NCBI GenBank assembly: GCA_030272155.1
Contig: CP126198.1
Location: 1,860,001-1,924,000 of the forward strand
Reading direction: 5' to 3'
Source: Tetradesmus obliquus
Taxonomy: Eukaryota; Chlorophyta; Chlorophyceae; Sphaeropleales; Scenedesmaceae
DNA length: 64,000 nt
Each line of letters begins with the position of its first letter. The stretch's first letter is position 1. Shown here one piece after another: positions 10,909-54,000 of this stretch. The notes below the pieces were generated by a model. The model was not told the DNA's origin and did no database searches. It worked only from the letters and a program-made list of their open reading frames with translations. The position numbers and the translations under genes are program-made.

Positions 10909-11910
10909 GGCAGCTGCCTATCCCGAAAAACCCCAATAAACAGTTTCAGATGTATACAAACCCAGCAGATGTTGCGAGTTTGTGTAAAGACGTTTTCAGG
11001 GAACGAAGCTGCTGCTTGAATGTCGAAAGGTAAGCCTCGCTGTTCTGGTGAAGCCGCTGCACGCAGTTGAAATAGCAAAGCGTCGAATGGTTACAAAGCA
11101 AAAGATCGGACTGTTGGGTTGTGCACTCAGCTGATGCACAATTGTTATTCGGGTTGGAAGAGGCATCTGTCGTTCGTGACGATCATAGGCATCTCAAACA
11201 AGTCTCATTGCTATATGTGCGTATGTTACAAGCCATTCAACGAAGCTGGTTGTCCTTTTGCAAGCAGGGTTTCCCTAGTGAGCGTTTGGCTCCTTTTGTC
11301 CTCGTCGCTACACAGCTGGACTGCTTCACTGCAACCAACAAGCGTGTCACACACAGATCAAGCCTTAACGTTGCATGTAGACGCGCTGCGCTGCAGGAAG
11401 TCTGTGCCGAGCAATGCACTGATGAACAGCATTCCTGCAGCACAGTCCTTTGGGGCTAGCCAGGCAACGCAGGGTTGCAGGAGGGCTAAGACAGCCATGA
11501 AGCTGCTTCAGACTCAACTTAATAGCAGGCTAGCACGCCCTTCTGTCTGCTCACAGCAACTAAGGTGCGGTTGGGGTGCCATGCTGCTGGCTGGCACAAG
11601 ATGCCATCCTGCATACACTGCAGCAGCACATGCACATCTGATCGACAGGACTCATGCATTATACCGTACCAACCTGCAAAGTCAACGTACGTGGCAATGG
11701 TTCAGAAGCTTGAGACATCTCCCAGCACTGCGCTAGAAGAAAGTTCAGTGCTGCTCCAGCATCTCACAGCCTGTAGATGTGCCTGCCTGTGTAGTAGCCC
11801 CAGCAGTGGTTGTGCAATTGTATAGCAGTTGCACCTGTTGCAAGCAACTGCTCACCAGCCCTTTCGTTGACGATAACCTTCATTGATGATAACCTACATT
11901 GATGACAACC
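10909..11910. other. Region without a firm gene; candidate 5' exon for the 5'-nucleotidase
   Basis: The first 200 bp should be the DUF1279 gene promoter. On the plus strand, ATG at 11422 opens MNSIPAAQSFGASQATQGCR followed by a basic Ala/Leu-rich stretch to 11564, resembling an organelle targeting peptide and ending at a GTGCGG donor. A second plausible segment, STYVAMVQKLETSPSTALEE, lies near 11679-11745. Neither could be joined in phase to the next 5'-nucleotidase exon (12533), so they are only candidates. Confidence 0.25.
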
Positions 11911-12020
11911 TCATTGCAATCCTGCGGCCTGCTGCAGCTTTAGCATGATTTCAGTTGCCCTCCCTGCAGTGGGGTCCCTCACTGTCGTTTCTTGTCGTTT
12001 TGGTTTGCTGCTGTCAATGC
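11911..12020 (-). CDS. Possible terminal exon of an unknown minus-strand gene
   Basis: After a CTG-rich stretch and an AACCCTCAAG acceptor-like site, the minus strand reads EALHSIDSSKPKRQETTVRD then PTAGRATEIMLKLQQAAGLQ and a TGA at 11911. The composition is protein-like, but no family is recognised. An upstream segment, ADTHYCLLCGTLRGG near 12198-12150, might be another exon. If real, the gene is head-to-head with the 5'-nucleotidase gene. Confidence 0.3.
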
Positions 12021-12475
12021 TGTGCAGGGCTTCCTTGAGGGTTTGTTGCAGCGTTAGCAGTAGTGGCAACGGGAGCAGCAGCATTGGCAGCAACAGCAGC
12101 AGCAGCAGCAGTAGCAGCGTCAGCACAGCAGCGACCGCAACTGCCGCAACCACCACGCAGCGTTCCGCAAAGCAAGCAATAGTGAGTATCAGCCTGCAGC
12201 AGGCACCACGTGCATTCCAAGCATTGCCATGCACTGCACGTTGCTAAACAGTTGCCTTGATGATTGATGGTATGTTCACAACAGTGGACAGCAGCATAGG
12301 TTGCTTGGTCAACAGAGTCAGGCCATGCAGAAGAGTTTAAACGATCATCGCAACAGCAGCACTCACTCACCTGCTCAGCCTGCGCAGCAGCTGCATGTGC
12401 CGGGTATGTCCCCTGAGCTGCTGCTGCTGCTCCCTTGGCAGTACCTTGTGAGCTTGGTTGCCACTAGTCATGCAA

Positions 12476-12506
<31 letters not shown>

Positions 12507-12532
12507 GACTGGCTGTGTGCTGCTGCTTGCAG

Positions 12533-15500
12533 GACTATGGAGTCATCCCGGCTCCCCCCAGCAGCAGGCAGGCCATCTGGACGGAGCAGGTGTGGGGCGC
12601 CAGCCCCAGCCTCAGCCGGCAGATCTTCTGCAACAGGAGCCTCAACATGAAGCAGATCAAGGTGCGCATATGTTGTGTAATGTTGCAGCAGACGATACAA
12701 GTCCAGCAGATGCATGTGTGCGTCCCTGCCCTCAACATGAAGCGGATGAAGGTGCAAGTGCGTGCAACGGTGTTACACAAGACGATGTACGTCAAGAAAA
12801 TCAGGTGACTTCTAACTCAAATAAAAAGTACATGTGGCACCTGCACATTTATATGTGTGTTTTGGTGGCGCGGTCGTTCGTGTCATGTGTTCGTTCAAAC
12901 CCCTCTTTCTTTCTGCTCAAAACCCTCCTGCAGGCCATCAGCATTGACATGGACTACACGCTCGCGCAGTACAAGCCTGACACCTTTGAGCTGCTGGCGC
13001 ACAGCCAGTGCATGTTGTTTGTAAACATTCAAATTGTTTTTCTGCAGGCCATTGGATTTGACATGGACTACACGCTCGCGCAGTACAAGCCTGACACCTT
13101 TGAGCTGCTGGCGCACAGCCAGTGCATGTTGTTTGTAAACATTCAAATTGTTTTCCTGCAGGCCATTGGATTTGACATGGACTACACGCTCGCGCAGTAC
13201 AAGCCTGACACCTTTGAGCTGCTGGCGCACAGCCAGTAAATGTTGTTTGTAAACATTGACATGGACTACACGCTCGCGCAGTACAAGCCTGACACCTTTG
13301 AGCTGCTGGCGCACAGCCAGTGCATGTTGTTTGTAAACATTCAAATTGCTTTCCTGCAGGCCATTGGATTTGACTTGGACTACACGCTCGCGCAGTACAA
13401 GCCTGACACCTTTGAGCTGCTGGCGCACAGCCAGTGCATGTTGTTTGTAAACATTCAAATTGTTTTCCTGCAGGCCATTGGATTTGACATGGACTACACG
13501 CTCGCGCAGTACAAGCCAGACACGTTTGAGCTGCTGGCGCACAGCCAGTGCATATTACATTGCTGTTACGAACGCATTCAAATGTTTCCTGCAGGCCATT
13601 GGATTTGACATGGACTACACGCTCGCGCAATACAAGCCAGACACCTTTGAGCTGCTGGCGCAAAGCCACTGCATGTTACACTGATGTTACACATGTATTT
13701 AAATGTTTCCTGCAGGCCATCGGCTTAGACATACACTACACGCTGGCTCAAGCCAGACACCTCCGAGCTGCTGGCGCACAGCCAGTGCATGTTACATTGC
13801 TGTTAAATGTTGAATTCAAATGTTTCCTGCAGGCAATCGGCTTTGACATGGACTACACGCTGGCGCAGTACAAGCCAGACACTTTTGAGCTGCTGGCGCA
13901 CAGCCAGACAGTCGACAAGCTGGTAACTGCTTTTGGCTACCCTCCGGAGCTGTATGACTTTAAGTTTGACTGGCGCTACATGATGCGCGGGCTCATCATC
14001 GACAAGGTGCGCAGGGTTCAGGTTTCAGATGCCACAAATTAGGGCACTGCTTTGCGCCAGTTTTGACTGGCGCTACATGATGCGAGGGCTCGTTACCGAC
14101 AAGGTGCGCAGGGTTCAGGTTTCAACTGCCATGTCTGGTTCAGGTTTCAGATGCCACAAATTAGGGCACTGCTTGGTGCCAGTTTGACTGGCGCTACATG
14201 ATGCGAGGGCTCATCATCGACAAGGTGTGCGGGGTTTAGGGTTCAAGTGCCACGTAGGGTTCCGGTTTCAAATGCCACGTAGGATTCAGGGTTCAGATGC
14301 CACACATTAGGGCACTGCTTTGTGCCAGTTTGACTGGCGCTACATGATGCGCGGGCTCATCATCGACAAGGTGCGCAGGGTTCAGGTTTATTTGCCACAA
14401 TCTAGGGCACTGCTTGCGTGAACCGTGCTTGTTTTCCCGCTGCATGTTGGTGTGGGCCAGGAACTGCTAGCAAAGCTCTGATATCAACTGTAGCCAGCTC
14501 AATACTCGCATATATGTACACATGATTGTTGCTGCCCTCTGCTCCTGCCCGCAGACGCGCGGCAACGTGATCAAGGTTGACAGGCACAAGTATGTCAAGG
14601 TGGCCTACCACGGCTTCAGGTCCCTCAGCAGCGAGGAGCGCAACGCAGTCTACAACCACAGCGCGGTGAGAGGGCTGCACGGTTGTGCAAAAGCATTGGA
14701 TCATCCTTCAATGCTGGGCCTCACAGATTTGATGCAAGCATATGGTTTGATGTGTGTTGTGGCACGCACAGCAGCCTGTAAGCAGTTGATCCTACTTGTA
14801 TGGCATCTGGCAGTTGCTGTGTCGCAATTGGAGTGCAACGCAGTCTGCAACCACAGCGCGGTGAGGGCTTGCAGGAAGGGTTGCAGGCAAAGCTGCAAGA
14901 CATGTGTCGCTGTACTTGCAGCAGTCTGTAAGCAGCTGAGTTCTCTGTTTCTGAAACCAGCATTCGGCAACAGCCTGGTCGCCTTGCCGTTGTAAAAGTA
15001 TAAGATTTGCTGCCTAGTCTCGCTTGTTTTGACGACCATGTCATCTGCCTACTAAGGACACCTGGCTGCAGGTGCGTGATAACTATGAGGAGCCGGCATA
15101 CAGCATGATTGACACGCACACTCTGCTCAGTCCTATTCATAACCCTGGCTGCAACTTTCCCGCTCTTTTTGGCCTGCAGGTGCGTGATGACTACGAGGAG
15201 CCCGCGTATGGCATGATTGACACGCTGTTCAGCCTGGCCGAGGCCTACCTGTTCATGCAGCTGGTAGAGCTGGTGGTGAGTAGCTGTAGTGTTTTACCTT
15301 CTGGAGCACACCGTTTGTTTCTCTAACTAAACGCCCACTATCCTTGTCTTGTAGCAGCTCAATATTGTGAGGGGTGCAAAAACTTTTAAGGGTGTTAGGG
15401 ATGAAGCTTTGCTGTCAGCGGCGCCAGGCAGCAGCAGCCTGTGCAGCTGTGAATGCAGCTTGTTGAGTTAGTGCGAGCAGGTTGGGCCGACCTCCCACAT

Positions 15501-15654
15501 CACAGGTCTGTGCCTGCTCCACGCACGAGTGCCAGTGCTGTCTGTGACATGTGCATCTGCTGCTGCTTGAACTTTAAACAAGCAAGCAAGACAAGGTTCT
15601 GGGCAAGCTGCCCAACTTCAGCAATGCAGTACAAGGGCTGCCTCTGACTGCTGG

Positions 15655-15702
<48 letters not shown>

Positions 15703-15799
15703 TGCTTGCAGGACAAGGCCCCCGGCAAGCTGCCCAACTTCAGCAGTCTTGTACAAGTGCTGCCTCTGACTGCTGCTGCTGCTGCTGCTTGTGCTGTGC

Positions 15800-15830
<31 letters not shown>

Positions 15831-15894
15831 TGCAGGACAAGGCCCCCGGCAAGCTGCCCAAATTCAGCAGCCTAGCTCAATTGCTGCCTCTGAC

Positions 15895-15934
<40 letters not shown>

Positions 15935-18900
15935 TGCAGGACAAGGCCCCCGGAAAGCTGCCCAACTTCAGCGGCTATGCGGGCGTGTACAGGGACGTGC
16001 GTGCAGCAGTGGACCTGTGCCACAGGGATGGCAGCCTCAAGCGCCACGTGGCAGCAAACCCCAGCAAGTACATCCACGATGTGAGTGCGCTGAGCATGCT
16101 GGCTGCTGTTGTGGAGTTTTATAGGTTGATGGTGGATGTAGATCCTGCGGCGTGCTGTGACATCACTCTGCTGGTGTGCATGGTGCCGTGCATCTGGTAC
16201 TGTGGAGTGCAAGCGGCAGCCGTCGGAGGTAGTTTGCAAGCAATGCCCGCCATGTGTTGTTGCTTCTGCTGGCAACTGCCTTGCACAACAGCATGTCACA
16301 TGCACAACATCACAACCATGCACAACAGCTGTTTCCTCAGGGGCATCATACAATCTGCAAGTTGCTGGAAGCAACAGCCACTGCTGCTGCTGCTGCTTCC
16401 TGCTGCCCGCAGGACCCCCACCTGGTGAGCATGCTGCAGATGTACAAGCGCAGCGGGCGGCAGCTGTTCCTTGCCACCAACAGCCTCTGGGACTACACGC
16501 ACGTGGTCATGAACTACCTCTGCGGGTGAGCGGCAGCAGCAGCAGCAGCGGCTGTCGCAACAGCAGACGCTGCAGTTGAGATGCTGTGTTGCGTTTGCAC
16601 TAGGGCCGCGGCGTGCCTGGTCCTGGCGCAGCCATCCATGTGTCCAGCTTGAATAGACTACACTCGCAGCAGCAGGTGCATGCACAGGACAGCACACCAT
16701 CAGCGGCTACATATGTGCGGCTGTGCAGGTCGCCAGCTGTAGCAACAACAACACCAACAACTGTGGAATTTTTCACAGAACTGCTATGTTTGCGCCGGTT
16801 TCCTACCCGCCGCTGCTTGCAGGAAGCGTGTGGGCAAGGTCAACAATGACGAGTGGCTGCGCATGTTTGACGTGGTGGTGTTGGGCTGCGGCAACCAACC
16901 CATAGCATCAAAGAACCAACCACTCCCCTGCCCGCCACTGCTTGCAGGAAGCGCTTGGGCAAGGCCAAGAACGACGAGTGGCTGCGCATCTTTGACATGG
17001 TGGTGGTGGGCTGCGGCAACAAACGCATGTATCAAAGAAGGAACTACTCCTCTGCCCGTCTCTGCTTGCAGGAAGCGCGTGGGCAAGGCCAAGAACGACG
17101 AGTGGCTGCGCATGTTTGACATGGTGGTGGTGGGCTGCGCTAACCAACCCACAACCATTTGCTTATCATCCACAATCACTGCCCTTCTGCCTGCTGCTGC
17201 TTGCAGGAAGCGTGTGGGAAAGGCCAAGAACGACGAGTGGCTGCGCATGTTTGACGTGGTGGTGGTGGGCTGCGGCAAGCCCACTGAACATGTGTATTCT
17301 TTCGCCCGCCACTGCTTGCAGGAAGCGTGTGGGCAAGGCAAAGATTGACGAGTGGCTGCGCAAGTTTGACGTTGTGCCCGTGGGCTGCGGCAAGCCCTCT
17401 GAATATTTGTATACTTGTGCCCGCCACTGCTTGCATGAAACGTGTGGGCAAGGCCAAGAATGACGAGTGGCTGCGCATGTTCGGCGTGGTGGGGGTAGGC
17501 TGCGGCAACCAACCCATATCATCAAAGACCTAACCACTCTTCTGCCTGCTGTTGCTTGTCCGCCGCTGCTTGCAGGAAGCGCGTGGGCAAGGCCAAGAAC
17601 GGCGAGTGGCTGCGCATGTTTGACGTGGTGGTGGTAGGCTGCGGCAACCAACCCATATCATCAAACACCCAACCACCCTTCTGCCTGCTGTTGCTCGCCT
17701 GCTGCTGCTGGCAGGAAGCGTGTGGGCAAGGCCAAGAACGACGAGTGGCTGCGCATGTTTGACGTGGTGGTGGTGGGCTGCGGCAAGCCTGGCTTCTTCA
17801 GCGAGCGGCGGCCGCTGTTTGCGGTCAGCACGCGCGACGGCGCGCTGCACAACACGGACAACGGCGCGCCGATCATCCCCCTTGGGGAGGAGGACCTGCC
17901 CGACGACATCCTGGTGCGTGGCGTGTTCTGGAATTCTGTTTGTTATGTTTGTTTGTTTGATACACGAGTTGGTATGCACCGGCGGCTATTTGGTACACTT
18001 TGCAGGGAGAGAAAGAAACACCGGCCTGTGCGCGCTCAAAGCAGTTTTAAGCGTCTGGGAGAGAATGTCGTGTAAGTAGTAGTCGAGGGTTACATTGGTC
18101 GTGCTCGCGTGAATGTCGCGTGGAGAGACGGAGGAGTTACACGGTGTGTTCACGCGGCATACGCCACGACAGACACTTGGTGCAATAGGAAGATGCAAGC
18201 AGCTCAGCTCGGGCTGTCACTCTGAGGTTCAACCCAAGGAAACCTCTGTGTGTAAGGCATGGAAATTGGAATGTCGCGTCCTTCGGTGAGAGAAAATGAC
18301 GATTCTCACTTCAGAAGCTTCAGCAGCTGTGCACATGCATGCTACGTTCAAACCACCATGAAAGCACCCGATCCCATCAGAACTCGGAAGTTAAGCATGG
18401 TTGGGCTCGATCAGTACTGGGTTGAGGGATCACCTGGGAACCCCGAGTAACGTAGTGTTCTTTTGCCATCAGGTGCGTCATGCCGCCGCTACTGGGCTGG
18501 TGTCAGGTAGGGGTTGCTGTAAACTGATGTGGCGTTGTCTGCAGTCTTGAGTGGGATACAAAAGGCATAAACGCATAAAAGCGTTGAGAGGGGTCTGTCA
18601 CAGGGGTGGGCAAGCTACAACCCGAGAGTGAGTCACTTGCCCCTCTTTCAGCTCACATATCATGAACACCCGATAGCAAGCCACAAGATGCAACCAAAGT
18701 ATAACTCCAGAGGCATCTTGCAGCCCCTACCTCCCCATAAACCAACAAGTACATGCAGTGCAGCATGTGCGAAAAAAAGCGTCAGATATAGATAGAGGGG
18801 TTACACGGTGTGTTCATGCGGCATACGCCACCACAGACACCTGGTAAAATAGGAAGCTGCAAGCAGCTCAGCTCGGGCTGTCACTCTGAGGTTTCAACCC

Positions 18901-21900
18901 CAGAAAAACCTCTGTGCGTAAGGTATGACAATGGTTATGCTAGCATAACCGTCTTCCTTACGACACGCAATTTGGCTGCAATCTGTGAATCTTCGGGCAT
19001 GAATGCAGTATTCTAAGCAGTGTTGGTGACAGCATTTTATACATCTTCCAGTGTAGAGGGCTGGCTGAACATGCTTCGCTGACTCAGCAAAATGCTGATA
19101 CAGACGCAAAGGCAGCACATGTGTAAATGTGAGTAGTGTGCTGGCTTTTGAGAGCACTGCATGTCATCAGCATGAAGCGAGTATGCACTGATGTCAATAC
19201 TCACCCAACAGCCTGGCAGCGTAATTGCCTCATGCTGATAGCATGCACAGCAAGCACGCAAGCAGGTATGCATGTGGAAAGCAGGTCAAGCAATAACACA
19301 CAATTGTACATGACATCATCTGCGAAGCACCCGTAAGCCATTGCCTCGCAAGATAGTGTGCCAGGCAACAAATGGCTGATGTGTGAGCAGCTGGTTCCTA
19401 CACCGACTGGGTACCCAAAAAAGCGTCGTCTGGCCTCCAAGAAAATGACGCTTCTCACTTCAAATGCTTCAGCAGCTGTGCACATGCATGCTACGTTCAA
19501 ACCAGCATGAAAGCACCCGATCACATCAGAACTCGGAAGTTAAGCATGGTTGGGCTCGATCAGTACTGGGTTGAGGGATCACCTGGGAACCCCGAGTGAC
19601 GTAGTGTTCTTTTGCCATCAGGTGCGTCGTGCCGCGGCTGATGGGCTGGTTTCACTATAAACCAGCGCACCAAAACAAGTTTTTGCGTATGTTTCGCTTG
19701 TGGCGTTGGCTACTGGGTGGGAGGACTTGCAAACACATCTTTTGTTTCCAGACATTCTCAGACCCAAGCAATGCAAGCATGTGACCTTATTGACTTGTAT
19801 ACTTGCGTGCTGAAACTCCTGCACTCGTGATTCATGATGCCTCATCAACAACCAACAATAATTCAGCAGCGCTTGGGTTCAACTGGAGCAGCACACTTGC
19901 CAAGCTGTTGTGCTGCACTGTACTGCTGTCTCAGCTGGACGCCGGAGAGGATGGGCAGCAGTGTGTCAGGGCGGCAACAATGTGGACTTTCATTGGAAAC
20001 ACACCGACCCTATGTCTTGTGATTGGACTGCTGTACTGCTGCAGGGCCGTGGCAGCACCATGTCGCAGCTGGACCTAGGGGAGGATGACAAGGCTGCAGT
20101 GTTCCAGGGCGGCAACTATGTGGACCTGCATCAGATGCTGGGCGTGCGCGCGGGCAGTGAAGTGCTGTATGTTGGGGACCACATCTATGGGGACATCCTG
20201 CGCAGCAAGAAGGTGCGCTGGTTATATGGTGCTTGAGACCTTCAATGTTACATAAGTTGCGTAATATGGCAGCGAGGTGCTGTATGTTGGGGACCACATC
20301 TACGGCGACATCCTGCGCATCAAAAAGGTGCGTGATGCGCACGTGTGGTGGTAGATACGTGTTTTCACTACAAACATAAAAGAACAAGGCTTGCCGCTGC
20401 TGTATGTTGGGGACCACATCTACGGCGACATCCTGCGCAGCAAGAAGGTGCGTGCTGCGCACGTGTGGTGGTAGATATGTGTTTGGACTACAAACATAGT
20501 AAGCTTGCCGCTGCTGTATTTTGGGGGCCACATATATGGGGACATCCTGCGCAGCAAAAAGGTGCGTGCTGCGCAAGTGTGGTTTCTGGATGTGGGCATG
20601 TATGGAAGCAGATGCTGTGCGTTGGGGACCACATCTATGGCAACATCCTGCGCAGCAAAAAGGTGCGTGCTGCGCAAGTGTGGTGGTAGCTGTGTTTTGT
20701 TGGCAAGCAGGTGCTGTGTATTGGGGACCACATTTATGGTGACATTCTGCGCAGCAAAAAGGTGCGCTAGATATCTGCTTTTGAACATTTTTTGTAACAT
20801 GGCAGTGAGGTGTTGTATGTTACGGACCATATTTAGGGCGACATCCTGCGCAGCAAAAAGGTGAGCTGCACACCTGATGCTTGGAGGAACATGAGCTGAG
20901 ACGTGTTGTGTGTGTTTGTGGCAGCTGCTGAGGATGATGCAGAGCCTGGTGTTATGTGGCTGAAAAGGCTGCTGCACTAACTATGAATGCGGATGGTGGA
21001 AGCAGATGTCTACCAAATCTGGTAGCGTATTCAGCAAGATCCCGTGGGTGCCACAACAACAGCTTTGCTTGTCCGATGTCAACCTTTGTTTGCTGTGTTG
21101 CATCTGCATCGTCGTGTCTCTGGCTGCACCATTGCCGGCCGATCAACCCCTTCTGCACTCATTGCCACTCGCTCCTGCTGCCCTGCTGCCGTACCATCAA
21201 ACATAACACACATGTAACAGAAAACAACACAAGAATAACAGTCGCTGGGCTGGCGCACGATGCTGATGGTGCCTGAGCTGGAGCAGGAGCTGACTGTGGC
21301 TGAGGCTGCTACATTGCTTCTGCGGTCCTCGCCTTTGCTGTGTGCTCCGTGCACCTTTGTGCCCGTGGCTGCAACATTAGCGGCACCTGGCACCTCTGAT
21401 GATCAAGACTTCCGCACTCACTATCATTTGCTCCTGCTGCTGCCCTGCCATGAATCAAGTAAACTAACACAATATAACACAAAAAAATAACATTCGCTGG
21501 GCTGGCGCACAATGCTGGTGGTGTCTGAGCCGGAGCAGGAGCTGGCTGTGGCTGAGGCTGCTACATTGCTTCTGCACTCCTAGTCTTTGCTGAGTGCTTC
21601 CGTGCATCTTAGTGCCTGTGGCTGCAACACTAGCAGCCCCTGACACCTTCGCTGATCAACACTTCCGCACTCACTATCATGCGCTCCTGCTGCTGTACTG
21701 TCTGACGTTAAATATAACACCTTTATGACACAAAAATAACACAATATAACAGTCACTGGGCTGGCGTACGATGCTGGTGGTGCCTGAGCTGGAGCAGGAG
21801 CTGGCTGTGGCTGAGGCCACCCGGACAACACAGTTTGAGCTCAAGATGCTGCGCAACGCTCGCTCAGACCTGGACACGCAGGTAAGGGACAGAGCAGCAT

Positions 21901-23991
21901 TAGACAGGCGTGTGCGCTGTTGCATGCAAGCAGCTTTAGATAGGGAGTTTGCTGAGGCCACCCGGACAACGCAGTTTGAACTCAAGATGCTGCGCAATGC
22001 TCGCTCAGACCTGGACACGCAGGTAAGGGGCAGGAAGGTAGCGGGCAGCTGTAGATGAGCTGTGTCCTGTTGCTTATGCTGTTGCTTGTGCTGTTGTGTG
22101 TGCTGGCGTGCGCGTGCGTATGCTGCAAGATGCTGCGCAACGCACGCTCAGACCTGGACACGTCGGTGCGGCACAGCTCAGCTTGAAGCAGCTTTTGATG
22201 TGCCGTGAACTGTTCATCAGCGGTCGTGCTGGCCTGCAAGTGCTGCAAGATGTTGCGCAATGCACACTCGGACCTGGACACTAGGTTTGGCAGCGCAGTC
22301 GAGCTGATTGGGGTCTAGCCAGGCTACAAGCTGTGTGAGTTGGCTGGCACGCGCTTGGGTGCACAGATGATGTTCAAAGCGCTCTGCTTTTCACGACAAT
22401 GGTGTGCTGTGATGTATGCTCTGCCCAACCACTTGCACCTGCACTGCATAACCACACTCACCTGCACTGCATGTACTGCCATCCACATGCCAATGTACTG
22501 CCGACCACATGCACCTGTACTGCAGATCCAGCGCCTGGAGTGGGCCTTCAAGCAGCGCGAGATTCCCCCAGAGGCGCTGCTGCAGAACCACTCACACCTG
22601 TACTGCTTGTACTGCCCCCCTCATGCATCTGTACTGCAGATCCAGCGCCTGGAATGGGCTTTCAAGCAGCGCGAGATTCCCCCAGAGGCGCTGACACTGT
22701 ACTGCTCAACAACATGCCTATGCACTGCCCAACAACATGCCTATGCACTGCCCAACAACATGCCTATGTACTGCCCAACAACATGCCTATGTACTGCCTA
22801 ACGTTGTTTGCAGATCCAGCGCCTGGAGTGGGCTTTCAAGCAGCGTGAAATCCCACCGGAGGCGCTGCTGCAGAACCAGGAGCAGCTGGCGCTGCTGCGT
22901 GCTGAGCGGGAGGCAGTGAAAGACAGGCACTCGCGGCTGCTGCTGGAGCACCATCAGGCGTTCCACCCCATATGGGGGCAGCTGCTGAAGACGGGCTATC
23001 AGAACAGCAGATACGGGCATCAGATAGACCGCTTCGCGTGCCTCTACACCAGCCATGTGAGTGCTGTTTGGGATTAACAGAAAGTCGATGCAAAAAGCAG
23101 ATGGGTAGTGCTGTTTGATGGGTGTGCAAATGTGCTGTGGGCATCAGCTAGACAGGTCTGCGTGCCTTTGCACCAGCCACGTGAGTGCTGCGTGCGTACA
23201 GGGGTGCAATGAAGGCATGGTACTGCTGCCTGTTTGGATGCGCTTGCGCGTTTAACTAGTACTAAATGTCGAGTTGGTGCTTCTGAGCGTACTGTGTTGC
23301 TACTTGTTGTGTTGTTATGCATCAGTGTTTACTACGTCTGCTGGTTGTGTCCCTTTGTCCAATCGCGCCGCACGTCGCCAACCTGGTGTTGTACTCACTT
23401 GACTGCTGGATTGGTTGTCGGCTGTCACAGCCAGCACTTGCACAGCGCTCTTCAACTTCGTCTCGATTTCTTTTGGTCTGTGTGTTTCGGTGTGTGTTAC
23501 GTCTGCTGCCTGCGCCATTTCTATCCTCCCTGCAGGTCGTCAACCTGGCGTTTTACTCGCTTGTCCGCGCATATGGCGGCCGTGTGGACTGCATGGCTCA
23601 AAAACTTCCATCGCTAAAGCATTGATTGGCATCCGCCTCTCACCCGCGCCACTCCTTGTCAGTAGATGCCCTTATTGTTTGTCTCACAATCTCTCTGTAC
23701 CCTTTTTCAAAGCCCTGCAGGTCGCGAACCTGGCGTTCTACTCGCCTGACCGTGCGTATGGCGGCCGCGTGGACTGCACAGCCGCCGTCAAGCCTGGCTG
23801 GCGCACACCTCTCATCTGCATCACTGCTGGTTGTCTCATGTGTGACATGCGTTTTGTGCTGCCTGTGCCTTTTATTGAACACCATGCAGGTCGCCAACCT
23901 GGCGTTCTACTCACCTGACCGTGCGTATGGTGGCCGCGTGGACTACATGGCTCATGAAGATGTGATGGGGCTGGAGGGCATGCAGAACTAG
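12533..23991 (+). CDS. HAD-superfamily 5'-nucleotidase (cN-II/NT5DC type), internal and C-terminal exons
   Basis: The family dephosphorylates nucleoside monophosphates such as IMP/GMP. Exons are 12533-12661, 13833-14006, 14555-14665, 15180-15275, 15940-16080, 16413-16525, 17715-17913, 20045-20212, 21753-21881, 22814-23056 and 23890-23991. All are phase-consistent, giving about 533 residues without the N-terminus. Motifs in order: [13 protein letters not shown], the HAD nucleophile motif [51 protein letters not shown] segment, motif [22 protein letters not shown], motif III region [21 protein letters not shown], motif [45 protein letters not shown] [18 protein letters not shown], and the C-terminus [18 protein letters not shown]. 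The catalytic aspartates are intact. Exon 1 with any targeting peptide is not resolved. Nearly every splice junction is tandemly duplicated and the 20045 exon is preceded by a 2.1-kb intron with 5S rRNA genes. Confidence 0.9.
12700..12770 (+). repeat. Duplicate of the exon end CTCAACATGAAG plus donor
   Basis: CCTCAACATGAAGCGGATGA ending AG|GTGCAAG (donor GT at 12752) copies the true exon end CCTCAACATGAAGCAGATCA ending AG|GTGCGC (GT at 12662), with 90 bp spacing. Confidence 0.8.
12934..13907 (+). repeat. Nine-copy acceptor array carrying the HAD nucleophile exon start
   Basis: Copies start at 12934, 13048, 13162, about 13254, 13360, 13474, 13595, 13716 and 13833. The unit is 114 bp where perfect: 75 bp of exon (AIGFDMDYT to LLAHSQ) followed by intron sequence TGCATGTTGTTTGTAAACAT through TTTCCTGCAG. 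No copy but the last continues into the exon, and none of the truncated copies has a GT at the cut. Copy 4 lost the intron part and acceptor; copy 8 has an internal deletion. The middle copies are almost identical to each other. Confidence 0.95.
13958..14400 (+). repeat. Four-copy donor array of exon end FDWRYMMRG
   Basis: TGACTGGCGCTACATGATGC ending GACAAG|GTGCGC recurs with donor GTs at 14007 (used), 14104, 14225 and 14371. The intronic parts share GGTTCAGGTTTCAGATGCCA and TTAGGGCACTGCTT. Spacing grows from 97 to 146 bp because the intronic linker itself is expanded. Confidence 0.92.
14822..14885 (+). repeat. Duplicate of exon end NAVYNHSA plus donor
   Basis: GTGCAACGCAGTCTGCAACC then ACAGCGCG|GTGAGG (GT at 14861) copies the true end GCGCAACGCAGTCTACAACC then ACAGCGCG|GTGAGA (GT at 14666). 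Confidence 0.8.
15066..15235 (+). repeat. Two-copy acceptor array of exon [15 protein letters not shown]
   Basis: The acceptor-proximal sequence CTGCAG|GTGCGTGATAACTA at 15072 duplicates the used one at 15180 with 108 bp spacing. The upstream copy breaks off after GATTGACACG. Confidence 0.85.
15592..15970 (+). repeat. Acceptor array of exon [11 protein letters not shown] with CTG runs
   Basis: Copies at 15712 and 15836 and the used exon at 15940 begin GACAAGGCCCCCGG and follow CTTGCAG or CCTGCAG. A more degenerate copy lies at about 15592. Each intronic linker contains a run of 8 to 16 CTG triplets, so each acceptor has its own CTG pyrimidine tract. Confidence 0.92.
16823..17786 (+). repeat. 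Eight-copy acceptor array of exon [17 protein letters not shown]
   Basis: Copies start at 16823, 16948, 17072, 17207, 17322, 17437, 17576 and 17715 (used), with spacing of 115 to 139 bp. Each has about 72 bp of exon (GAAGCG to GGCTGCGGCAA) plus a linker ending CTTGCAG. Copy 6 (17437) has GCATG instead of GCAGG and has lost its acceptor AG. The exon-derived part is visibly more uniform than the linkers. Confidence 0.95.
18125..18930 (+). repeat. 5S intergenic spacer repeats
   Basis: A segment of about 110 bp beginning GTTACACGGTGTGTTC and containing GCAAGCAGCTCAGCTCGGGC occurs at about 18134 and again at about 18799. The 5S copies are 1,149 bp apart while these spacer markers are only about 665 bp apart, so the second unit carries roughly 480 bp of extra sequence between about 18925 and 19440. 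Confidence 0.8.
18339..18458 (+). rRNA. 5S ribosomal RNA, copy 1
   Basis: 120 nt. The ends pair perfectly in helix I with G-U wobbles (ATGCTACGTT against AACGTAGTGT). The internal promoter and loop signatures are present: AAAGCACCCGATCCCATCAG, AACTCGGAAGTTAAGC, GTACTGGGTTGAGGGATCAC and TGGGAACCCCGAG. Sequence is close to chlorophyte (Chlorella-type) 5S rRNA as I remember it. A pol III terminator TTCTTTT follows at about 18458. It sits inside a protein-gene intron in the same orientation. Confidence 0.95.
19488..19607 (+). rRNA. 5S ribosomal RNA, copy 2
   Basis: 120 nt, nearly identical to copy 1. Differences include GATCACATC for GATCCCATC in the A-box-flanking region, CCAGC for CCACC, and GAGTGACG for GAGTAACG. 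It has the same TTCTTTT terminator. The change in the conserved CCCATC may mean this copy is degenerate. Upstream (AAAATGACG, GCTTCAGCAGCTGTGCACAT) and downstream (GCCATCAGGTGCGTC) flanks are shared with copy 1. Confidence 0.93.
20150..20875 (+). repeat. Seven-copy donor array of exon end [16 protein letters not shown]
   Basis: Donor GTs are at 20213 (used), 20328, 20448, 20562, 20663, 20762 and 20861. Each copy holds about 65 bp of exon end (from GTGCTGTATGTTGGGGACCA to CGCAGCAAAAAG) then a variable linker. Copy 7 has an in-frame TAG (ATTTAGGGC) and GTGAGC as donor. The region encodes HAD motif IV, GDHIYGD. Confidence 0.95.
21060..21835 (+). repeat. Three-copy acceptor array of exon [17 protein letters not shown]
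   Basis: Copies begin at 21242, 21494 and 21753 (used), 252 to 259 bp apart. The linker includes GCAACA...TAGC, TTCCGCACTCACTATCAT and ATAACACAATATAACA. In copy 2 the acceptor AACAG is AACAT, so it cannot splice there. The intron 3' end is unusually AT-rich for this locus. Confidence 0.9.
21815..22290 (+). repeat. Four-copy donor array of exon end [13 protein letters not shown]
   Basis: AAGATGCTGCGCAACGCTCG to the donor recurs with GTs at 21882 (used, GTAAGG), 22023 (GTAAGG), 22166 (GTGCGG) and 22285 (GTTTGG). Copies are progressively shorter and more diverged downstream. Confidence 0.9.
22520..22880 (+). repeat. Three-copy acceptor array of exon [18 protein letters not shown]
   Basis: Copies begin at 22526, 22640 and 22814 (used). 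ATCCAGCGCCTGGAGTGGGC through GAGGCGCTG is preserved. The linkers contain a separate short tandem array of GCCCAACAACATGCCTATG, four to five copies at about 22705-22800. Confidence 0.92.
23130..23195 (+). repeat. Duplicate of exon end FACLYTSH plus donor
   Basis: GGGCATCAGCTAGACAGGTC to AGCCAC|GTGAGTGCTG (GT at 23181) copies GGGCATCAGATAGACCGCTT to AGCCAT|GTGAGTGCTG (GT at 23057). Confidence 0.85.
23372..23960 (+). repeat. Four-copy acceptor array of the last exon ([15 protein letters not shown])
   Basis: Copies begin at 23372, 23536, 23721 and 23890 (used), 164 to 185 bp apart. Copy 1 has lost the AG (GCACGTCGCC for GCAGGTCGCC). Each copy reads roughly [18 protein letters not shown]. Confidence 0.92.
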
Positions 23992-27956: not shown

Positions 27957-30900
27957 TGGAAGCACTCGTCCTGCAGCCGTTGTCTTGCCATTTGTCTCCA
28001 TGTCGCGAACAGAACTCAACAGCAGTAGCAGCAGGACTGGCAGCAGCTGCTGCTGGGATTAGCAGGTTCCACCAGAGCAGACTACAAGCTGCTTGCCGGT
28101 CACATAGTTGCTGACTACGTATCACAGTGGCATGTGGCGACATGCTTGCAGAGTACCTTAGTCGTACGTGCCAAATCCTTTTTTGCCTTTGCTGAAGAGT
28201 GTGAACTCCGCACTCACCACAGCAACTCAGCATTCACAAGCCTGGGCTTGCCTCTGCAGGTGTGTGATGCTTACCAAGACCTTCTGGAGTTTGAAGGTCA
28301 GGACAGAGATGAGCTCCTGCTGCTGCTGAAGGACCGCCACGCGCGCTACCTGCAAGCAGGACTTGGCCAGCTGCCATCAGGTAGGGTGGAGATCAAGACA
28401 AAGTCTGAACTCGCAGCTGCAGCAGCAATCGCTGCAGCACAGCAGCTGGTGTGGCACCTGCATTTGGTGAACTGTCGAGCAGTGCAGGTGGAAACTTCCT
28501 TTTTAATGTTGTTCTAAGTGTTGTGTTGCTATGTGCACACCTGCTGGCATGCCTTCCGTTTAGACACCAGCTGATTGCTTGACGCGGCCCAAACCCGCCA
28601 AATCCGTACCGCCATTCCATCTTACCATATCACAATACAGGCTTCATCAGTCTGGATGCAAGCAGACCTTGGATCTGTTACTGGGTGCTACACGGCCTAG
28701 CACTCCTGCAAGCGCCCCTGCCCAGCAGCATCTCCAGCAGCCAGGTCATCACTTTCCTGCAAGCATGCCAGCACGCCAGCGGCGGCTACGGCGGCGGGCC
28801 GGGGCACCTGCCGCACCTGGCGCCCACGTACGCTGCTGTGTGCGCGCTGCTGACATTGGGGGGCGCAGAAGCCTACGACAGCATTGACAGGTACAGTGCG
28901 GCTGCAGCTGTTTGCCTTTCTTTGCGCTGCGTCGCACTGTGCGAGTGTTTGTAATGTAGCATGCCCGGCGTCCTCGTATGCTGCCGTGTGCGCGCTGCTG
29001 ACACTGAAGGGCGCAGAAGCGTACACCAGCATTGATCGGTTAAGGTGTACCTTTGACGTGCAGCTGCAGCTGTCTGCCCATTTTTACGTGGCTTCACAGC
29101 GTGCAAGGTTTTTGCAGCATGTGTGACCGCATGTAAATACTCATGGTGCATGTGGCAAGATGGGCTGAGCAGTGCTGCTGCTGCTGCTGCTGCTGCTGCT
29201 GCGTGTTGCTCAAAGGGCTGGTGTGTGGGATTTCCTGTGCCGCATGGCTGTGCCACCGGAGCAAGGAGGCGGCTTCCGGATGCATGAAGGTGAGCTGCAG
29301 CTGCATGCCTGTCTGTGTTGTGGTTTCAGCAAGTTACATGGCTGGGGTCCCAGCAAGGTGCTGAACATGCAAGCCTAGAGGTGTTGGTGCTGTGGTATGT
29401 TGCTGCTGTGGGTCCGGATAGCAACCACCAGCCACTGCTCAGGGTTCTGGCAGCACCGTGTTTGTTGGCTTGCCCCCCACTCTGTACTATTCAGTGTTGC
29501 TGCATTTTGTTGATGTGCCTGCCCTCACAATGAGCATCACTCGCACCTCATCCTCTGAATGTTTAGGCCCTCTGCTTACATGCAGAATGCAAATCATTGT
29601 AACTCTATGTCTACATCTGTCACTATCCTGCTTGCATGCAATTGGATAAACCCCGCTGTCAGCATCTGTGAACACCTATGTGTCATCTGTGTAACCATGC
29701 AGGCGGCGAGTGCGATGCGCGCAGCTGCTTCACGGCGCTGGCGGTGGCGTCGGCACTGTGCCTGGACGTGCCTGGCCTGGTGGCCAGGTCTGGGGTGGTG
29801 GACTTCCTGCGCCGCTGCCAGGTGAGGCAGCAGCAGCAGCAGCAGCTGTTTGCGTTCTGATTGGGGTTTGCCTCTGTGCCTGGCCTGGTGGCCAGGTCAG
29901 GCGTTGTGGACTACCTGCGCGGCTGCCAGGTGAGACAGCAGCAGCAGCAGCAGCAGCGGCAGCAGCAGCAGCAGCACAGCTCAGCCCTTTGCATTTGATT
30001 GGGGCATTCTCCTCCATTTGCCTCTCTTATGCCCTGATCAGCGGTGCCTTCTACCAGCCAGCCCATGTTTAGCCAGCCCATCGTCTACAGGCACCTGGTG
30101 CTCTCCTGGTCAGCGGCCTGCGTGCTGGCCCTTCCATCCTGTATGCAAGTTGCTTGCGGTCTGCACATCAATCCTCGTCACCGCACTCACCGTTGTTGCT
30201 CTTGTCTTGCAGACATATGAGGGCGGCCTAGGCGGTGAGCCAGGCAACGAAGCACACGGCGGCTACACCTTTTGTGGCCTCGCTGCTCTAGTGCTGGCAG
30301 GCTGCCCGCATGCACTCGACCTGCAGAGGCTGCTGCACTGGGCAGCACAGCGGCAGGGCTGGTCAGAAGGGGGCTTCAATGGCAGGACTAATAAGCTGGT
30401 GGATGGCTGCTACAGCTTCTGGCAGGGGGGCGTGTTCCCGCTGCTGCAGGAGCTGCTGGGGGTGCAGCAGCCGCAGGAGGAGCTGGCGCAGCAGGTATGT
30501 GGTGTTTGCCGTGTGAAGCAGCAGCAGCAGCAGCAACAGCAGCACACACGTGGTCATAGTCTGTGTTATCAAAACATGAGGTGACTGGACTGTAATTCCT
30601 TTGGTGGTGCAAGCCATGATCATGTGTGGCTGAAAGCCTTGTGTGCATTGTGCCTGCTGCAGGCGCAACACCAGCTTGGGCTGTGCCGCAACGTTGCAAC
30701 GTATGCACCACTGGAACCGCCGGCCAGCTGGCAGCAACAGCAGCAGCAGCAGGAAGAGCTGGTGGTGCCTGATCTCCCTGACCTCAGCAGAGTGCTGGGA
30801 CCCCTGCAGCAGGTGGGATGTGGCTGAGCTCTTGCTGCGTCTGTGTCTTGGTGGCTACTGCTGTGCATCTGACACCGTGGACACCGCGGTGCGACTCATG

Positions 30901-44771: not shown

Positions 44772-44803
<32 letters not shown>

Positions 44804-45839
44804 AGCTGCAGCTGCAGCGGCCCCTGCTGGTGGCCGCAAGCGCGGCGCGGCTGCCCGCCATGCAGTAGAGGATGCTGAGCCAGAGCCACAGGATGGTGCC
44901 GCTGCAGCATCAGCACAGGCTGGGGAGGCTGCGGCTGCAGCAGCTGCTGCAGCGCCAGCAAGCAAGAAGGCCAAGAAGGGCGCTGCTGCTGCAGCTGCAG
45001 AGGCGGCAGCTGAGGAGGAGGCTGCAGCTGAGGCAGCAGCCAAGCCCGGCAACAAGGCAGGCAGGGGCAGGGCCACTGCTGCACACAAGGAAGATGCGGT
45101 GGGTGAGGAGCAGCATGCTGCTGACGAGGTAGCAGAGGAGGCAGCTGCAGTGGCTGCCAAGCCTGCAGCCAAGGGCAGGGCAAAGGCAGGCAGGGGCAAG
45201 GCAGCAGCTGCAGATGAGGCGCCTGCAGCAGCAGTGGCAGAGGAAGCGGCTCCTGCTCCTAAGGCTGCTGCTGGCAAGGCAGCACGCGGCCGTGGTGCTC
45301 GCAGTGCTGCTGCAGCCGCAGAGGAGGTGCATGACGAGCCTGCTGCTGCAGCACCAGCAGCCAAGGGCAGGAGGGGCAAGGCAGCAGCAGCAGCTGAGGT
45401 GCAAGAGGAGCAGCAGCAGCCAGCAGAGCCAGCAGCTGCGAAGCCGGCTGCTGCAAAGGGCAGGAGGGTCAAGGCTGCTGCAGAGGCTGCAGAGCCTGCT
45501 GCAGTAGCAGCAGCAGAGGAGGAGACAAAGCCAGCAGCAGGCAGGAAGAGGGCTGCAGCTGCTGGCAGCAAGAAGAAAGCGGCTGAGCAGGAGACAGAGC
45601 AGCAGCAGGCTGAGGAGGAGCAGCCGGCGCCTGCAGCCAAGAGGACCAAGCGCGGCGCTGCTGCTGCTGCTGAGCCTGAGGTGGAAGCGGCAGCAGCAGC
45701 AAAGCCAGCTGCGGCAGCAAAGAAGGGCAGCAAGGCTGCAGCTGGTGGCAGCAAGAAGGCTGCTGCTGCTGCTGCTGTTGAGGAGGCTGCTGAGGCTGCT
45801 GCAAAGCCAGCAGGCAGGGCCACTCGCAGCAGGCGCTGA
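36342..45839 (+). CDS. Giant Ala/Lys/Glu-rich protein with SFG motifs (about 2,450 residues), function unknown
   Basis: Exons are 36342-36414, 36544-36657, 36914-36979, 37158-37229, 37400-37489, 37769-37870, 38130-38258, 38520-38687, 38991-41350 and 41652-45839. The first eight introns are all phase 1, the ninth phase 0. The N-terminus reads MSSDTPSWWSDPLKGDPDLS. Exons 4 to 7 each contain a related motif (VSFGIWQGSA, ASFGEWGAKSQNPGT, VSLQGWAQQG, VSFDGWGDKAKTPGT). Exon 9 has repeated EFSFGTA, SLSFGAR, SFSFGIT, SFSFGCT and many SP/TP sites. Exon 10 is mostly Ala with Lys/Arg/Glu/Pro, with GRKGRG-like AT-hook-type patches and one conserved-looking segment VQFADDKGAPLEQF. No enzyme domain is visible. 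A chromatin, nuclear-pore or spindle protein is possible, but this rests on composition only. Exon 10 being one uninterrupted 4.2-kb frame contrasts with the rest of the window. Confidence 0.75.
38764..38779. repeat. Poly-G run in an intron of the giant Ala-rich gene
   Basis: About 14 consecutive G after GCATGCGTG, within intron 38688-38990. The length is prone to sequencing error. Confidence 0.7.
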
Positions 45840-51030: not shown

Positions 51031-54000
51031 ATGCTGGCTCAGCAGGCTGTCAGGTGCATCACGAATGGCCGTGCACGCCTCGCAGTCAGCTGCCAGGCAG
51101 TGGAGCCAAAGAAGATCCTGATGATGGGTGAGCAGCAGCAGCAACAGCAGCTGCAGTGACAGGAGCAGCGACAGCAGCAGTGGCACGCGCAACAGCTTTG
51201 ACCTTGCACCAACTGCTTATGATTGCAGCAGGGTGAAACAACAGCAAGCACGCAGTGGTAGGTCCCAGCATGCAGCAGCGCTCACAGCTTGACCAGCACC
51301 CCATGGCTGAGCCTCTCTGATTTGAGTTGTGTGGGTGGCTGTACATGTGGAAGTCGGCAGCTGGGACATCTGTGGTCGCCGCAACTCGCTGCAACGCACT
51401 GCACTGAGCAGGTGGCATACGCTTCGTCAGGCTGTACCTGGAGCGCCAGCTGGCTGAGGCCCTCGCACTGCACTCTTTCCAACCACACTTTATTTATACA
51501 TTTGTGTATGTCTCACTGCGCAGGCGGCACTCGCTTCATCTGGTTGTACCTGGCGCGCCAGCTGCTGGAGGCAAGGCACTGCACTGCACTCCCTTCACCC
51601 CTTCACCCCTTATCTATGGGTGGTTTTCTAATAAGTCTACTCGTTGGTTTTCTAACCGAATCATCCTCTAACTTGTTGCGCAGGTGGCACTCGCTTCATC
51701 GGTCTGTACCTGGCACGCCAGCTGGTGGAGGCAGGGCACGAAGTGACCCTGTACACACGCGGCAAGAAGGCCATCACCAGCCAGATCGCTGACGATACTG
51801 ACTGGGGCTACAAGAAGTTTGCCAGCAGCATCAAGCACATTGCAGGAGACCGCCAGGTGCGCTTTATTCAGCATAGTGTTTATGGGGCGGGCATCAGCAT
51901 ACTGATAGGGTTTGGTCACCAGCCAAATCGCTGACGACACCGACTGGGGTTACGAGAATTTTGCCAGCAGCATCAAGCACAATGCAGAAGACCGCTAGGT
52001 GCGCATGTTGTATATGTTGCGCTTTTGGGTGCAGCGCAGTGATTGCTGCTGTTGTAGCTTGTAGTGCTGGATGCAGCGCAGTGGTTGCTGCTGTTGTTCT
52101 GTCTGCTCGTTCTCCACAGCATTGTGAAGCACATCCCGGGGGATCGCCAGGTGCTGTATTAAGCAGTGTAGTGTAGTGTAGTGTAGTTTGTTATGAAACA
52201 GACTGGGGCAAGGAAGGAACATATTCTCAAAACGCCTACTGCTGCGCTGGTGTGCCTTGCAGGACTTCGACGATGTGCGCCGCAAGCTGAGCGGCAGCGG
52301 CTTCCAGGTGGTGTTTGACACAACTGCACATGACCGCATGAACATTTTTGAATATGTGTCACCATCTGCTTGCAGGACTTTGATGATGTGCGCCGCAAGC
52401 TGAGCGGCAGCGGCTTCCAGGTGGTGTTTGACATCAACGGCCGCGAAGTTGTGGAGGCTGAGCCGCTGCTGTGTGGTTTTGTGGCTTGCAGGATCCATAA
52501 GACGTGCGCTGCAAGCTGAGCCCTTGCAGCTTCCAAGTGGTGTTTGACTTTTGCACCTGAAACCCCAGCATCACATGAAACATCACAAATATTTTGTCGC
52601 TATTTGTGCTTGCAGGACTTTGACGATGTGTGCCGCAAGCTGAGTGGCAGCGGCTTCCAGGTGGTCTTTGCCATCAACGGCCGCGAGGCGGTGGAGGCTG
52701 AGCCGCTGCTGGACGCACCTCCTGCTGCTGTGTGGCGTTGTGGCTTGCAGGATTCATAAGACGTGCGCTGCAAGCTGAGCCCCTGCAGCATCCAAGTAAC
52801 CTGTGTATTTGTTGCCCGACCGCACTGCTTGAATTCCAACTCCATGCGTTACACTCTGCTTGCAGGACTTTGACGATGTGCGCCGCAAGCTGAGCGGCAG
52901 CGGCTTCCAGGTCGTCTTTGACATCAACGGCCGCGAGGCGGTGGAGGCTGAGCCGCTGCTGGACGCACTGACTGGCAGGGGAGGCAGCCTGGAGCAGTAC
53001 ATCTACTGCAGCAGCGCAGGTGCGGCTGCATCATGTTTCCAGCAAGTGCCTTGCGGTCGTCGTATGCGGTGGTGTGCGCACTATGAAGCAGTAAGTTCGT
53101 AGTGCGCGATGTCCAGCCCTTGCTGTGCGTATGCCTTCACACCTCTCATGATGTGACAAGCTGCTGGGCTGGTTACCGCTATTACAGCTGGCTAAATAAC
53201 TGCCAGGCTTCCGGGTGAAGTTCAGCAGACCAGCATTTGACACCATCACATTGAGTTGACAATGTTCAGCCTCCTGCTGCTTGTTAGTGTTTGTCCAACC
53301 GTTTCTTTTGCTGGCTCGGCGCTGAACTGTTGATTTGGTCTCTTGCTGCTGCCAGGCGTGTACCTCAAGAGCGACCAGATGCCTCACCGCGAGGAGGATG
53401 CAGTGGACTTCAAGAGCAGGCACAAGGTAGGAGCACTGCGTAGCGAGCAGCAGCAGGTTCAGCAGCAGCAACAGCAGCCAGGGAGCAAGCAAGCAACTCA
53501 GCAAACCAGTCAGCAAGCAAACAAGCAGCAACAGCTGGAGCAGCAGCTGCTGGAGCAGGCTGCAGCGCATGCCGGACAGGAGGCATCTGCAGCTTGGCAC
53601 CGTCTGCTTGCGCGGCCACAGCAAGCACGTCTCCCTGAAGCCCTAGGGCTTGCACGTTCACACAATCAGCATCATACTTGCCATTGCTAAGCTGCCTCGT
53701 GCTCAACCCTCAAACCCGTACCTGACACTCTCTGACACCTCTCATGTCAAACCCAAAAAACCTGAACCCGCAGGGCAAGCTGGAGACTGAGGACCTGCTG
53801 CAGCGCAGCGGCGTGAACTACACCAGCATCCGCCCCGTGTACATCTACGGCCCGCTCAACTACAACCCCGTGGAGGAGTTCTTCTTCCACCGCATCAAGG
53901 CGGGCAGGCCCATCTGCGTGCCAGGCAGCGGCATGCAGGTGATGATCAGTAAAAACAGCGCTGCTAGGATGATTGGCCAGTCGACGAAGCCTTGCCAGAA

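What the first reader, a model, noticed from the sequence alone, without database searches (positions are those of the whole stretch)
12533..23991. Most splice junctions of one gene are tandem arrays of decoy splice sites
In the 5'-nucleotidase gene, about fifteen intron/exon boundaries exist in 2 to 9 tandem copies. At acceptors the unit is intron end plus exon start, and the used copy is last. At donors the unit is exon end plus intron start, and the used copy is first. No decoy can replace the real site because each truncated copy lacks the rest of the exon. The arrays look like independent local duplications with different unit lengths (about 97-260 bp), not one mobile element, since each copies its own exon. 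Geometry alone follows from any duplication that spans a junction and is tolerated because it can be spliced out. What is not explained by chance is the concentration on junctions and on certain genes. It may reflect break/repair or replication slippage at exon edges, a recombination process acting on transcripts, or a role in splicing control. I do not know of a described system with this density, but I could not search.
Basis: partly seen in the sequence, partly recalled or inferred. Interest (0 to 1): 0.93.

Follow-up and report, generated by a model that had tools for sequence, protein, structure and literature searches.

The report
Decoy splice-junction arrays across an algal genome
In the green alga Tetradesmus obliquus, about a quarter of the exon edges that could be checked have been copied side by side into the neighbouring intron, leaving rows of false splice sites; a single such event is known from potato, but I found no report of a genome with so many.

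Summary
The window lies in Tetradesmus obliquus; the gene is a purine 5'-nucleotidase with 13 exons. Of its 24 splice junctions, 14 (13 firm, 1 weak) exist in 2-9 tandem copies, with the used acceptor last and the used donor first. It is not peculiar to this gene: in 17 genes, 51 of 194 junctions carry such decoys, and 12 of 17 genes have some. Random placement predicts 46-49% intron-only repeats; 51 junction arrays stand against 2 intron-only repeats, both in the intron that holds two 5S rRNA genes. Much of that excess is survivorship, because intron-only copies decay beyond recognition: corrected for this, 6-15 should still be visible. The splice site is not the sole anchor: similar duplications cross 3 of 11 stop codons, and repeats wholly inside predicted exons mostly keep the frame (13 of 16). 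Decoys evolve nearly neutrally and score like real sites, so exon context must select the real copy. Annotated isoforms suggest that two decoys are used in frame. Best reading: a high local tandem-duplication rate filtered by selection, with a residual preference for coding edges that I cannot explain. A single precedent is known (potato); nine searches showed no account of this scale.

The parts
11497..23991 (+). 5'-nucleotidase gene (PF05761), 13 exons: 11497-11564, 12028-12181, 12533-12661, 13833-14006, 14555-14665, 15180-15275, 15940-16080, 16413-16525, 17715-17913, 20045-20212, 21753-21881, 22814-23056, 23890-23991 (last one with the stop codon)
   Evidence: exact spliced alignment of P0003; P0001-P0003 found
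12730..12807 (+). donor decoy of exon 3 (1 copy, 22 exonic nt)
12917..13785 (+). acceptor decoys of exon 4 (8 copies, unit about 114 bp, up to 75 exonic nt); the used copy is 13816-13907
14062..14415 (+). donor decoys of exon 4 (3 copies, 42-44 exonic nt); the used copy starts at 13963
14183..14224 (+). one exon-4 donor decoy that annotated isoform P0001 uses as an in-frame 42-nt cassette exon
   Evidence: exact spliced alignment of P0001; same repeated residues in P0002 of strain OEZ85
14830..14873 (+). donor decoy of exon 5 (31 exonic nt)
15066..15117 (+). acceptor decoy of exon 6 (46 exonic nt)
15536..15871 (+). acceptor decoys of exon 7 (3 copies, 33-36 exonic nt)
16806..17647 (+). acceptor decoys of exon 9 (7 copies, 68-75 exonic nt)
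19927..19993 (+). weak acceptor-side copy of exon 10 (interior exon sequence only; the match does not reach the junction)
20268..20883 (+). donor decoys of exon 10 (6 copies, 50-60 exonic nt)
21199..21558 (+). acceptor decoys of exon 11 (2 copies, unit about 250 bp)
21951..22298 (+). donor decoys of exon 11 (3 copies)
22471..22693 (+). acceptor decoys of exon 12 (2 copies)
23139..23190 (+). donor decoy of exon 12
23339..23778 (+). acceptor decoys of exon 13 (3 copies)
51404..55411 (+). second affected gene in the window (CSP41b-like NAD-dependent epimerase): decoys at 5 of 14 junctions modelled
28824..29934 (+). third affected gene in the window (prenyltransferase-like, PF00432): donor decoys of exons 3 and 5, 2 of 16 junctions

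Best explanation
T. obliquus gains short tandem duplications (mostly 0.1-0.15 kb) at a high rate. Inside an exon they survive mainly if they keep the frame. Across an exon edge (acceptor, donor or stop codon) they survive because one copy still sits against the rest of the exon, and the spliceosome, judging by the exon rather than by the site, uses that copy: last acceptor, first donor, that is the shortest exon. Extra copies are then nearly neutral; they multiply, drift, and may occasionally be taken up as in-frame alternative exon sequence. Copies holding only intron decay fast and drop out of sight, which exaggerates the concentration on edges. A residual preference for coding edges remains after that correction, and its physical cause is not known. 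Shown: the arrays, their wide occurrence in the sample, near-neutral decoys, in-frame exon repeats, stop-codon cases. Inferred: the duplication process and its rate, exon-based choice of site, and decay as the main filter.
For: 51 of 194 junctions in 17 genes carry decoys. 133 repeat arrays in 314 kb; of the 80 outside modelled genes 54 are mixed exon and non-coding, 16 exon-only, 3 intron-only, 7 without a predicted gene (exons there are predictions of my own gene finder). Exon-only periods are divisible by 3 in 13 of 16, p 1.2e-4. Similar duplications cross 3 of 11 stop codons, with no donor-like hexamer within 50 nt of those stops. Changes private to one decoy fall 59:53:84 on codon positions 1:2:3, against 4:2:27 where the real exon differs from all its agreeing decoys. 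Decoy sites: GT kept in 52 of 59, AG in 43 of 48; median scores 7.7 against 7.7 (donor) and 9.4 against 9.8 (acceptor), so the site alone cannot decide. Introns with arrays have a median of 258 bp after collapse, those without 282 bp. Simulated intron-only duplicates with each array's own divergence: detection probabilities sum to 16.2 over 48 arrays.
Against: After the visibility correction 15.0 intron-only arrays are still expected (6.3 from two-copy arrays alone) and 0 of the ordinary kind are seen: P 3e-7 and 0.002; if the two repeats of the 5S-bearing intron are counted, 4e-5 and 0.05. Units are set round the edge more tightly than random placement of the same units gives: sd of the exonic part 20.6 against 36.8 nt; exonic and intronic parts uncorrelated (rho 0.009 against -0.58); exonic part 28-67 nt even in exons of 210-636 nt (9 arrays). 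Requiring at least 42 intronic and 16-22 exonic nt does not remove this (p 0.0015 or less); requiring 50 and 22 weakens it (p 0.04 for rho, 0.006 for sd). Decoys are not wholly neutral by every count: changes shared by several decoys fall 12:6:39, and in-frame stops are 6 against 16.5 in a (too high) random model. Start codons have none (0 of 11), which selection against upstream start codons might explain.
Confidence: 0.55

Rival explanations
1. An edge-directed duplication process: something that sits at the boundary of coding and non-coding DNA (paused polymerase, nucleosome or Okazaki-fragment ends, an RNA-templated repair event) makes duplications reach about 55 nt into the exon and about 75 nt out of it.
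For: Two sides independent and tightly set about the edge; no ordinary intron-only arrays where 6-15 are expected visible. Of 22 young repeats (at least 88% matches over the period), 11 hold a coding edge: 6 in modelled genes, 2 by inspection, 3 by gene prediction only.
Against: Of the same 22, 3 are exon-only, 5 lie outside predicted genes, 2 with 36-bp units are intron-only, and 1 (AT-rich, 106-bp unit) lies in a doubtful predicted intron, so young repeats are not bound to edges without exception. No common motif was evident by eye at the exonic break points. The visibility correction assumes that introns near junctions and in mid-intron age alike.
Confidence: 0.27
2. The decoys regulate splicing: they slow it, cause intron retention or feed alternative isoforms, and are kept by selection.
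For: Annotated isoforms use a decoy as a 42-nt cassette exon (P0001; same residues in P0002) and a decoy donor 147 nt downstream in the glutamate-cysteine ligase gene (P0131), both in frame.
Against: Near-neutral codon-position pattern of changes private to one decoy. 12 of 107 decoy sites have lost their dinucleotide; the 5.6% divergence at second codon positions would predict about 12 by drift alone (my arithmetic, no formal test). Annotated isoforms at repeats can be alignment artefacts (PMC10632439, abstract read).
Confidence: 0.08
3. Intron gain or exon gain in progress by tandem duplication: decoys are intermediates toward new exons and introns.
For: P0001 has one exon and one intron more than P0003, made from a duplicated donor unit; the potato case has a like logic (PMC4974935, abstract read).
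Against: The only such case seen among the models made here, known from annotation only; most decoys look inert.
Confidence: 0.08
4. Assembly artefact.
For: Tandem repeats are hard to assemble; raw reads were not available.
Against: The second strain's protein P0002 holds the same repeated residues; copies differ from each other in sequence and in period; the pattern recurs on several contigs.
Confidence: 0.02

Closest known systems
[quoted passage not shown] abstract read)
   Same: a tandem duplication crosses an intron-exon boundary; most splice signals of the copy come from the parent structure
   Different: one event in one gene, with part of the copies spliced as a new intron; here 51 junctions in 12 of 17 genes, arrays up to 9 copies, donors as well as acceptors, and most copies apparently unused
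Exonic AGGT duplication model of intron gain (as described in the same abstract)
   Same: tandem duplication supplies splice sites
   Different: there the unit is exonic and supplies both AG and GT; here units cross an existing edge
Intronic minisatellites (recalled)
   Same: head-to-tail units
   Different: each array copies its own exon edge, and ordinary intron-only arrays are almost absent from the modelled genes
Introner elements (recalled)
   Same: many introns affected in one genome
   Different: introners are one sequence family moving between genes; here different genes share almost nothing
Decoy exons in intron retention, for example OGT (PMC12017769; listing and start of abstract only; details recalled)
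   Same: unused splice sites inside an intron that resemble real ones
   Different: decoy exons are held to be regulatory; these decoys show no clear constraint

Membership tests
Junction-crossing tandem genomic duplication (potato RdRp type) | duplicated unit crosses an existing intron-exon boundary | tested here: met
   51 of 194 junctions; 44 of 46 arrays contain an exon edge
Junction-crossing tandem genomic duplication (potato RdRp type) | a copy is spliced as a new intron or exon | tested here: inconclusive
   annotated isoform P0001, with the same residues in P0002; no RNA data at hand
Exonic AGGT duplication model | exonic unit with AGGT that becomes both splice sites of one new intron | tested here: not met
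   the units of the junction arrays contain an existing junction
Introner elements | one sequence family shared by introns of different genes | tested here: not met
   1 between-gene match at E<=1e-6 over all pairs of gene pieces
Minisatellite or VNTR | head-to-tail units | tested here: met
Minisatellite or VNTR | copy-number polymorphism between strains | not testable with these tools
   DNA of the second strain was not found among the collections at hand
Tandem exon duplication | whole exon copied with both splice sites | tested here: not met
   decoys hold part of an exon at one edge; the nearest to a whole exon is 71 of 78 nt in exon 4 of the glutamate-cysteine ligase gene
Decoy exons (intron detention) | decoy sites conserved or acting in splicing | tested here: inconclusive
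   near-neutral substitution pattern; activity itself not testable here

The most novel reading that the evidence does not exclude
A mutational process in this alga recognises the edges of coding sequence: splice donors, acceptors and stop codons. It duplicates a footprint of about 55 nt of exon and 75 nt of flank, over and over, seeding (by extrapolation from the sample) thousands of decoy junctions genome-wide and supplying raw material for new exons and introns.
Probability: 0.25. Interest if true: 0.9.

Novelty: new variant of a known kind. Interest (0 to 1): 0.7.

Why it matters
How introns are gained rests on few proven recent cases, as the potato paper says in its abstract. Here one genome seems to hold very many junction-crossing duplications of all ages, so gain, tolerance and loss could be watched and counted. 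It is also a natural test of how the spliceosome picks one of up to nine near-identical sites, and it warns that gene prediction and RNA alignment can go wrong in such genes (my own gene finder called decoys exons).

Tried and rejected
Mobile element: rejected, almost no sharing between genes. Pure chance: rejected. Detection bias as the whole cause: at first I projected scores of the intronic parts, which made most arrays look visible; the stricter simulation gave 16.2 of 48 (3 of 51 arrays could not be used), so bias explains much but not all. Tolerance limits as the cause of the centred units: not sufficient, though limits of 50 intronic and 22 exonic nt weaken the effect. Exon-centre anchoring: rejected, the exonic part does not grow in long exons. 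Donor against acceptor: 30 of 97 and 21 of 97, no significant difference. Haematococcus as source organism: a guess from memory, rejected. The paralogue on contig 9 (L012) looked almost free of repeats, but the more sensitive one search shows five arrays there. Break-point microhomology: looked at by eye in one array (sequence), nothing firm. Literature: nine searches, of which I saw listings of 10-20 papers each; none describes this pattern as far as the listings show, and the library lacks most subscription journals. The AS-6-11 strain genome paper (PMC7590803) has no word beginning with 'intron' or 'tandem' in its main text (find and passages only); passages only were read of the Haematococcus genome paper (PMC7617258).

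Rows dropped before counts: gene models from P0241 and P0251 (poor alignment); doubtful small or end exons of the CSP41b, papain-like, OYE, FAD, UBA, P250 and P157 models; a 30-nt gap in FCP1 merged into one exon. Fragments were chosen by hand from the highest coding scores, avoiding very conserved families; 16 of 24 submitted gave a gene that was used, 6 gave none and 2 were dropped. The OYE model keeps one stop in its best frame. One search counts 109 decoys, merges them to 107. Affected genes are ones with annotated homologues, and the window's own genes are not a random choice.

Full report
What it is. The window is part of a 5,918,163-bp contig of a 104.7-Mb genome. A protein search returned OEZ86_014231 of Tetradesmus obliquus from a contig of exactly that length. 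The gene is a purine 5'-nucleotidase of the PF05761 family. An exact spliced alignment of P0003 gives 13 exons and 12 GT-AG introns at 11497-23991.

The observation. Aligning each exon with its flanks to the gene found copies of exon edges with adjoining intron at 14 of 24 junctions, 13 firmly. Arrays have 2 to 9 copies. In the first count 15 of 15 donor decoys kept GT and 21 of 25 acceptor decoys kept AG. P0003 uses the last acceptor and the first donor in these arrays. P0001, and P0002 from another strain, carry a repeated [14 protein letters not shown]; in this genome the second copy is a 42-nt exon made of one donor decoy.

Is it general? I fetched 17 stretches of 10 kb at fixed positions on other contigs, two flanks of the window, the paralogue region and five further stretches. 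Gene fragments were picked by hand from the highest coding scores, not by repeats, and modelled from annotated or homologous proteins. With the 5'-nucleotidase this gave 17 genes in 18 pieces with 97 introns and 194 junctions. 51 junctions (30 donor, 21 acceptor) in 12 genes have decoys; five genes have none. A separate clustering of all repeats inside these genes gave 46 arrays, 44 holding an exon edge and 2 intron-only, both in the intron with the two 5S rRNA genes. A gene finder trained on these models and run over 314 kb found 133 arrays; of 80 outside the modelled genes, 54 were mixed exon and non-coding, 16 exon-only, 3 intron-only and 7 without a predicted gene. A kinesin gene on contig 2 shows six partial copies of one exon, about 138 bp apart, ahead of the fuller match, found by a different method; that listing was cut.

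Is it more than chance? Placing units of the observed lengths at random on genes with arrays collapsed predicts 46-49% intron-only among intron-only and single-junction units. Observed: 2 of 53 (p about 1e-12), or 0 of 37 without the 5'-nucleotidase (p 1.5e-10). This overstates the case. Exon parts of decoys remain recognisable because the real exon is conserved, while intron parts often do not. I therefore mutated synthetic intron duplicates with the pattern seen between each real intron part and its nearest decoy, and searched for them in the same way: detection probabilities sum to 16.2 over 48 arrays. That leaves 15.0 intron-only arrays expected, or 6.3 from two-copy arrays alone, against 0 of the ordinary kind (P 3e-7 and 0.002); counting the two repeats of the 5S-bearing intron gives 4e-5 and 0.05. 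Young repeats are few: of 22 with at least 88% matches over the period, 11 hold a coding edge (6 in modelled genes, 2 by inspection, 3 by prediction only), 3 are exon-only, 5 lie outside predicted genes, 2 with 36-bp units are intron-only, and 1 AT-rich one lies in a doubtful predicted intron. So the bias is real but smaller than it looks, and rests on modest numbers.

Is it about splicing? Not only. Three of 11 stop codons are crossed by a similar duplication, with periods of about 113, 205 and 443 bp; no donor-like hexamer lies within 50 nt of these stops, though one of them (FCP1) has such hexamers 52 to 126 nt beyond. 0 of 11 start codons have one. Repeats wholly inside predicted exons have periods divisible by 3 in 13 of 16 cases (p 1.2e-4). 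This is what a general duplication process filtered by selection would leave.

What is not explained. The exonic part is 57 nt on average (sd 20.6) and does not depend on exon length or on the intronic part; random placement of the same units gives sd 36.8 and rho -0.58, and the observed values were never reached in 2000 trials. In exons over 200 nt (9 arrays) it is 28-67 nt. Limits on tolerated units narrow the gap but do not close it: with at least 42 intronic and 16-22 exonic nt p stays at 0.0015 or less, with 50 and 22 it is 0.04 (rho) and 0.006 (sd). The edge itself seems to organise the unit.

Are the decoys functional? Differences between decoy and real exon favour third positions (155:117:381), but changes private to one decoy are 59:53:84 and those where the real exon stands alone are 4:2:27; changes shared by several decoys are 12:6:39. 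I read this as constraint mainly on the real copy. In-frame stops are fewer than in a random-substitution model (6 against 16.5), a model that overestimates because it spreads the real exon's silent changes over all positions. Of 107 decoy sites 95 keep their dinucleotide, and 61 score at least as well as their own real site. Site strength cannot therefore choose the real copy; the shortest-exon rule fits exon definition (general knowledge). In the glutamate-cysteine ligase gene P0131 extends exon 4 by 147 nt, to the position of a decoy donor, while P0132 uses the real one. Such isoforms come from annotation; aligners are known to err at repeats (abstract of PMC10632439).

Relation to what is known. 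The potato RdRp case is a single junction-crossing tandem duplication that gave a new intron (abstract). A like event is here repeated in many genes, at both kinds of splice site and at some stop codons, and amplified into arrays. Nine literature searches showed no account of this in their listings.

Noticed in passing
window 18340-18458 and 19489-19607 (+): Two 5S rRNA genes, same strand as the host gene, lie inside intron 9 of the 5'-nucleotidase gene in a duplicated stretch 1149 bp apart; a genome search listed six 5S genes in all (lower bound).
   Followed up: partly
window 38450-45839 (+): Two giant open frames (973 and 1458 codons) rich in CAG/GCA repeats, with internal tandem repeats, three of them with periods divisible by 3 inside predicted exons (102, 174, 189 bp).
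   Followed up: partly
L031 (contig 16) 16-6039: Satellite-like arrays with periods of about 279 and 345 bp, no predicted gene.
   Followed up: no
contig 2, 7430665-7431657 (-): Kinesin motor exon with six partial copies ahead of it, about 138 bp apart.
   Followed up: no
L014 6029-6972 (-): Flank of the window: a multi-copy acceptor array in another gene, fullest copy last (by inspection).
   Followed up: partly
L026, P0153: Annotated protein OEZ86_013414 has domains of a mannosyltransferase and of an old-yellow-enzyme family (PF11051, PF00724), possibly two genes fused in annotation.
   Followed up: no
introns of the 17 modelled genes: Introns with decoys at one end tend to have them at the other (both ends in 11 of 97 introns; Fisher p 0.03).
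   Followed up: no
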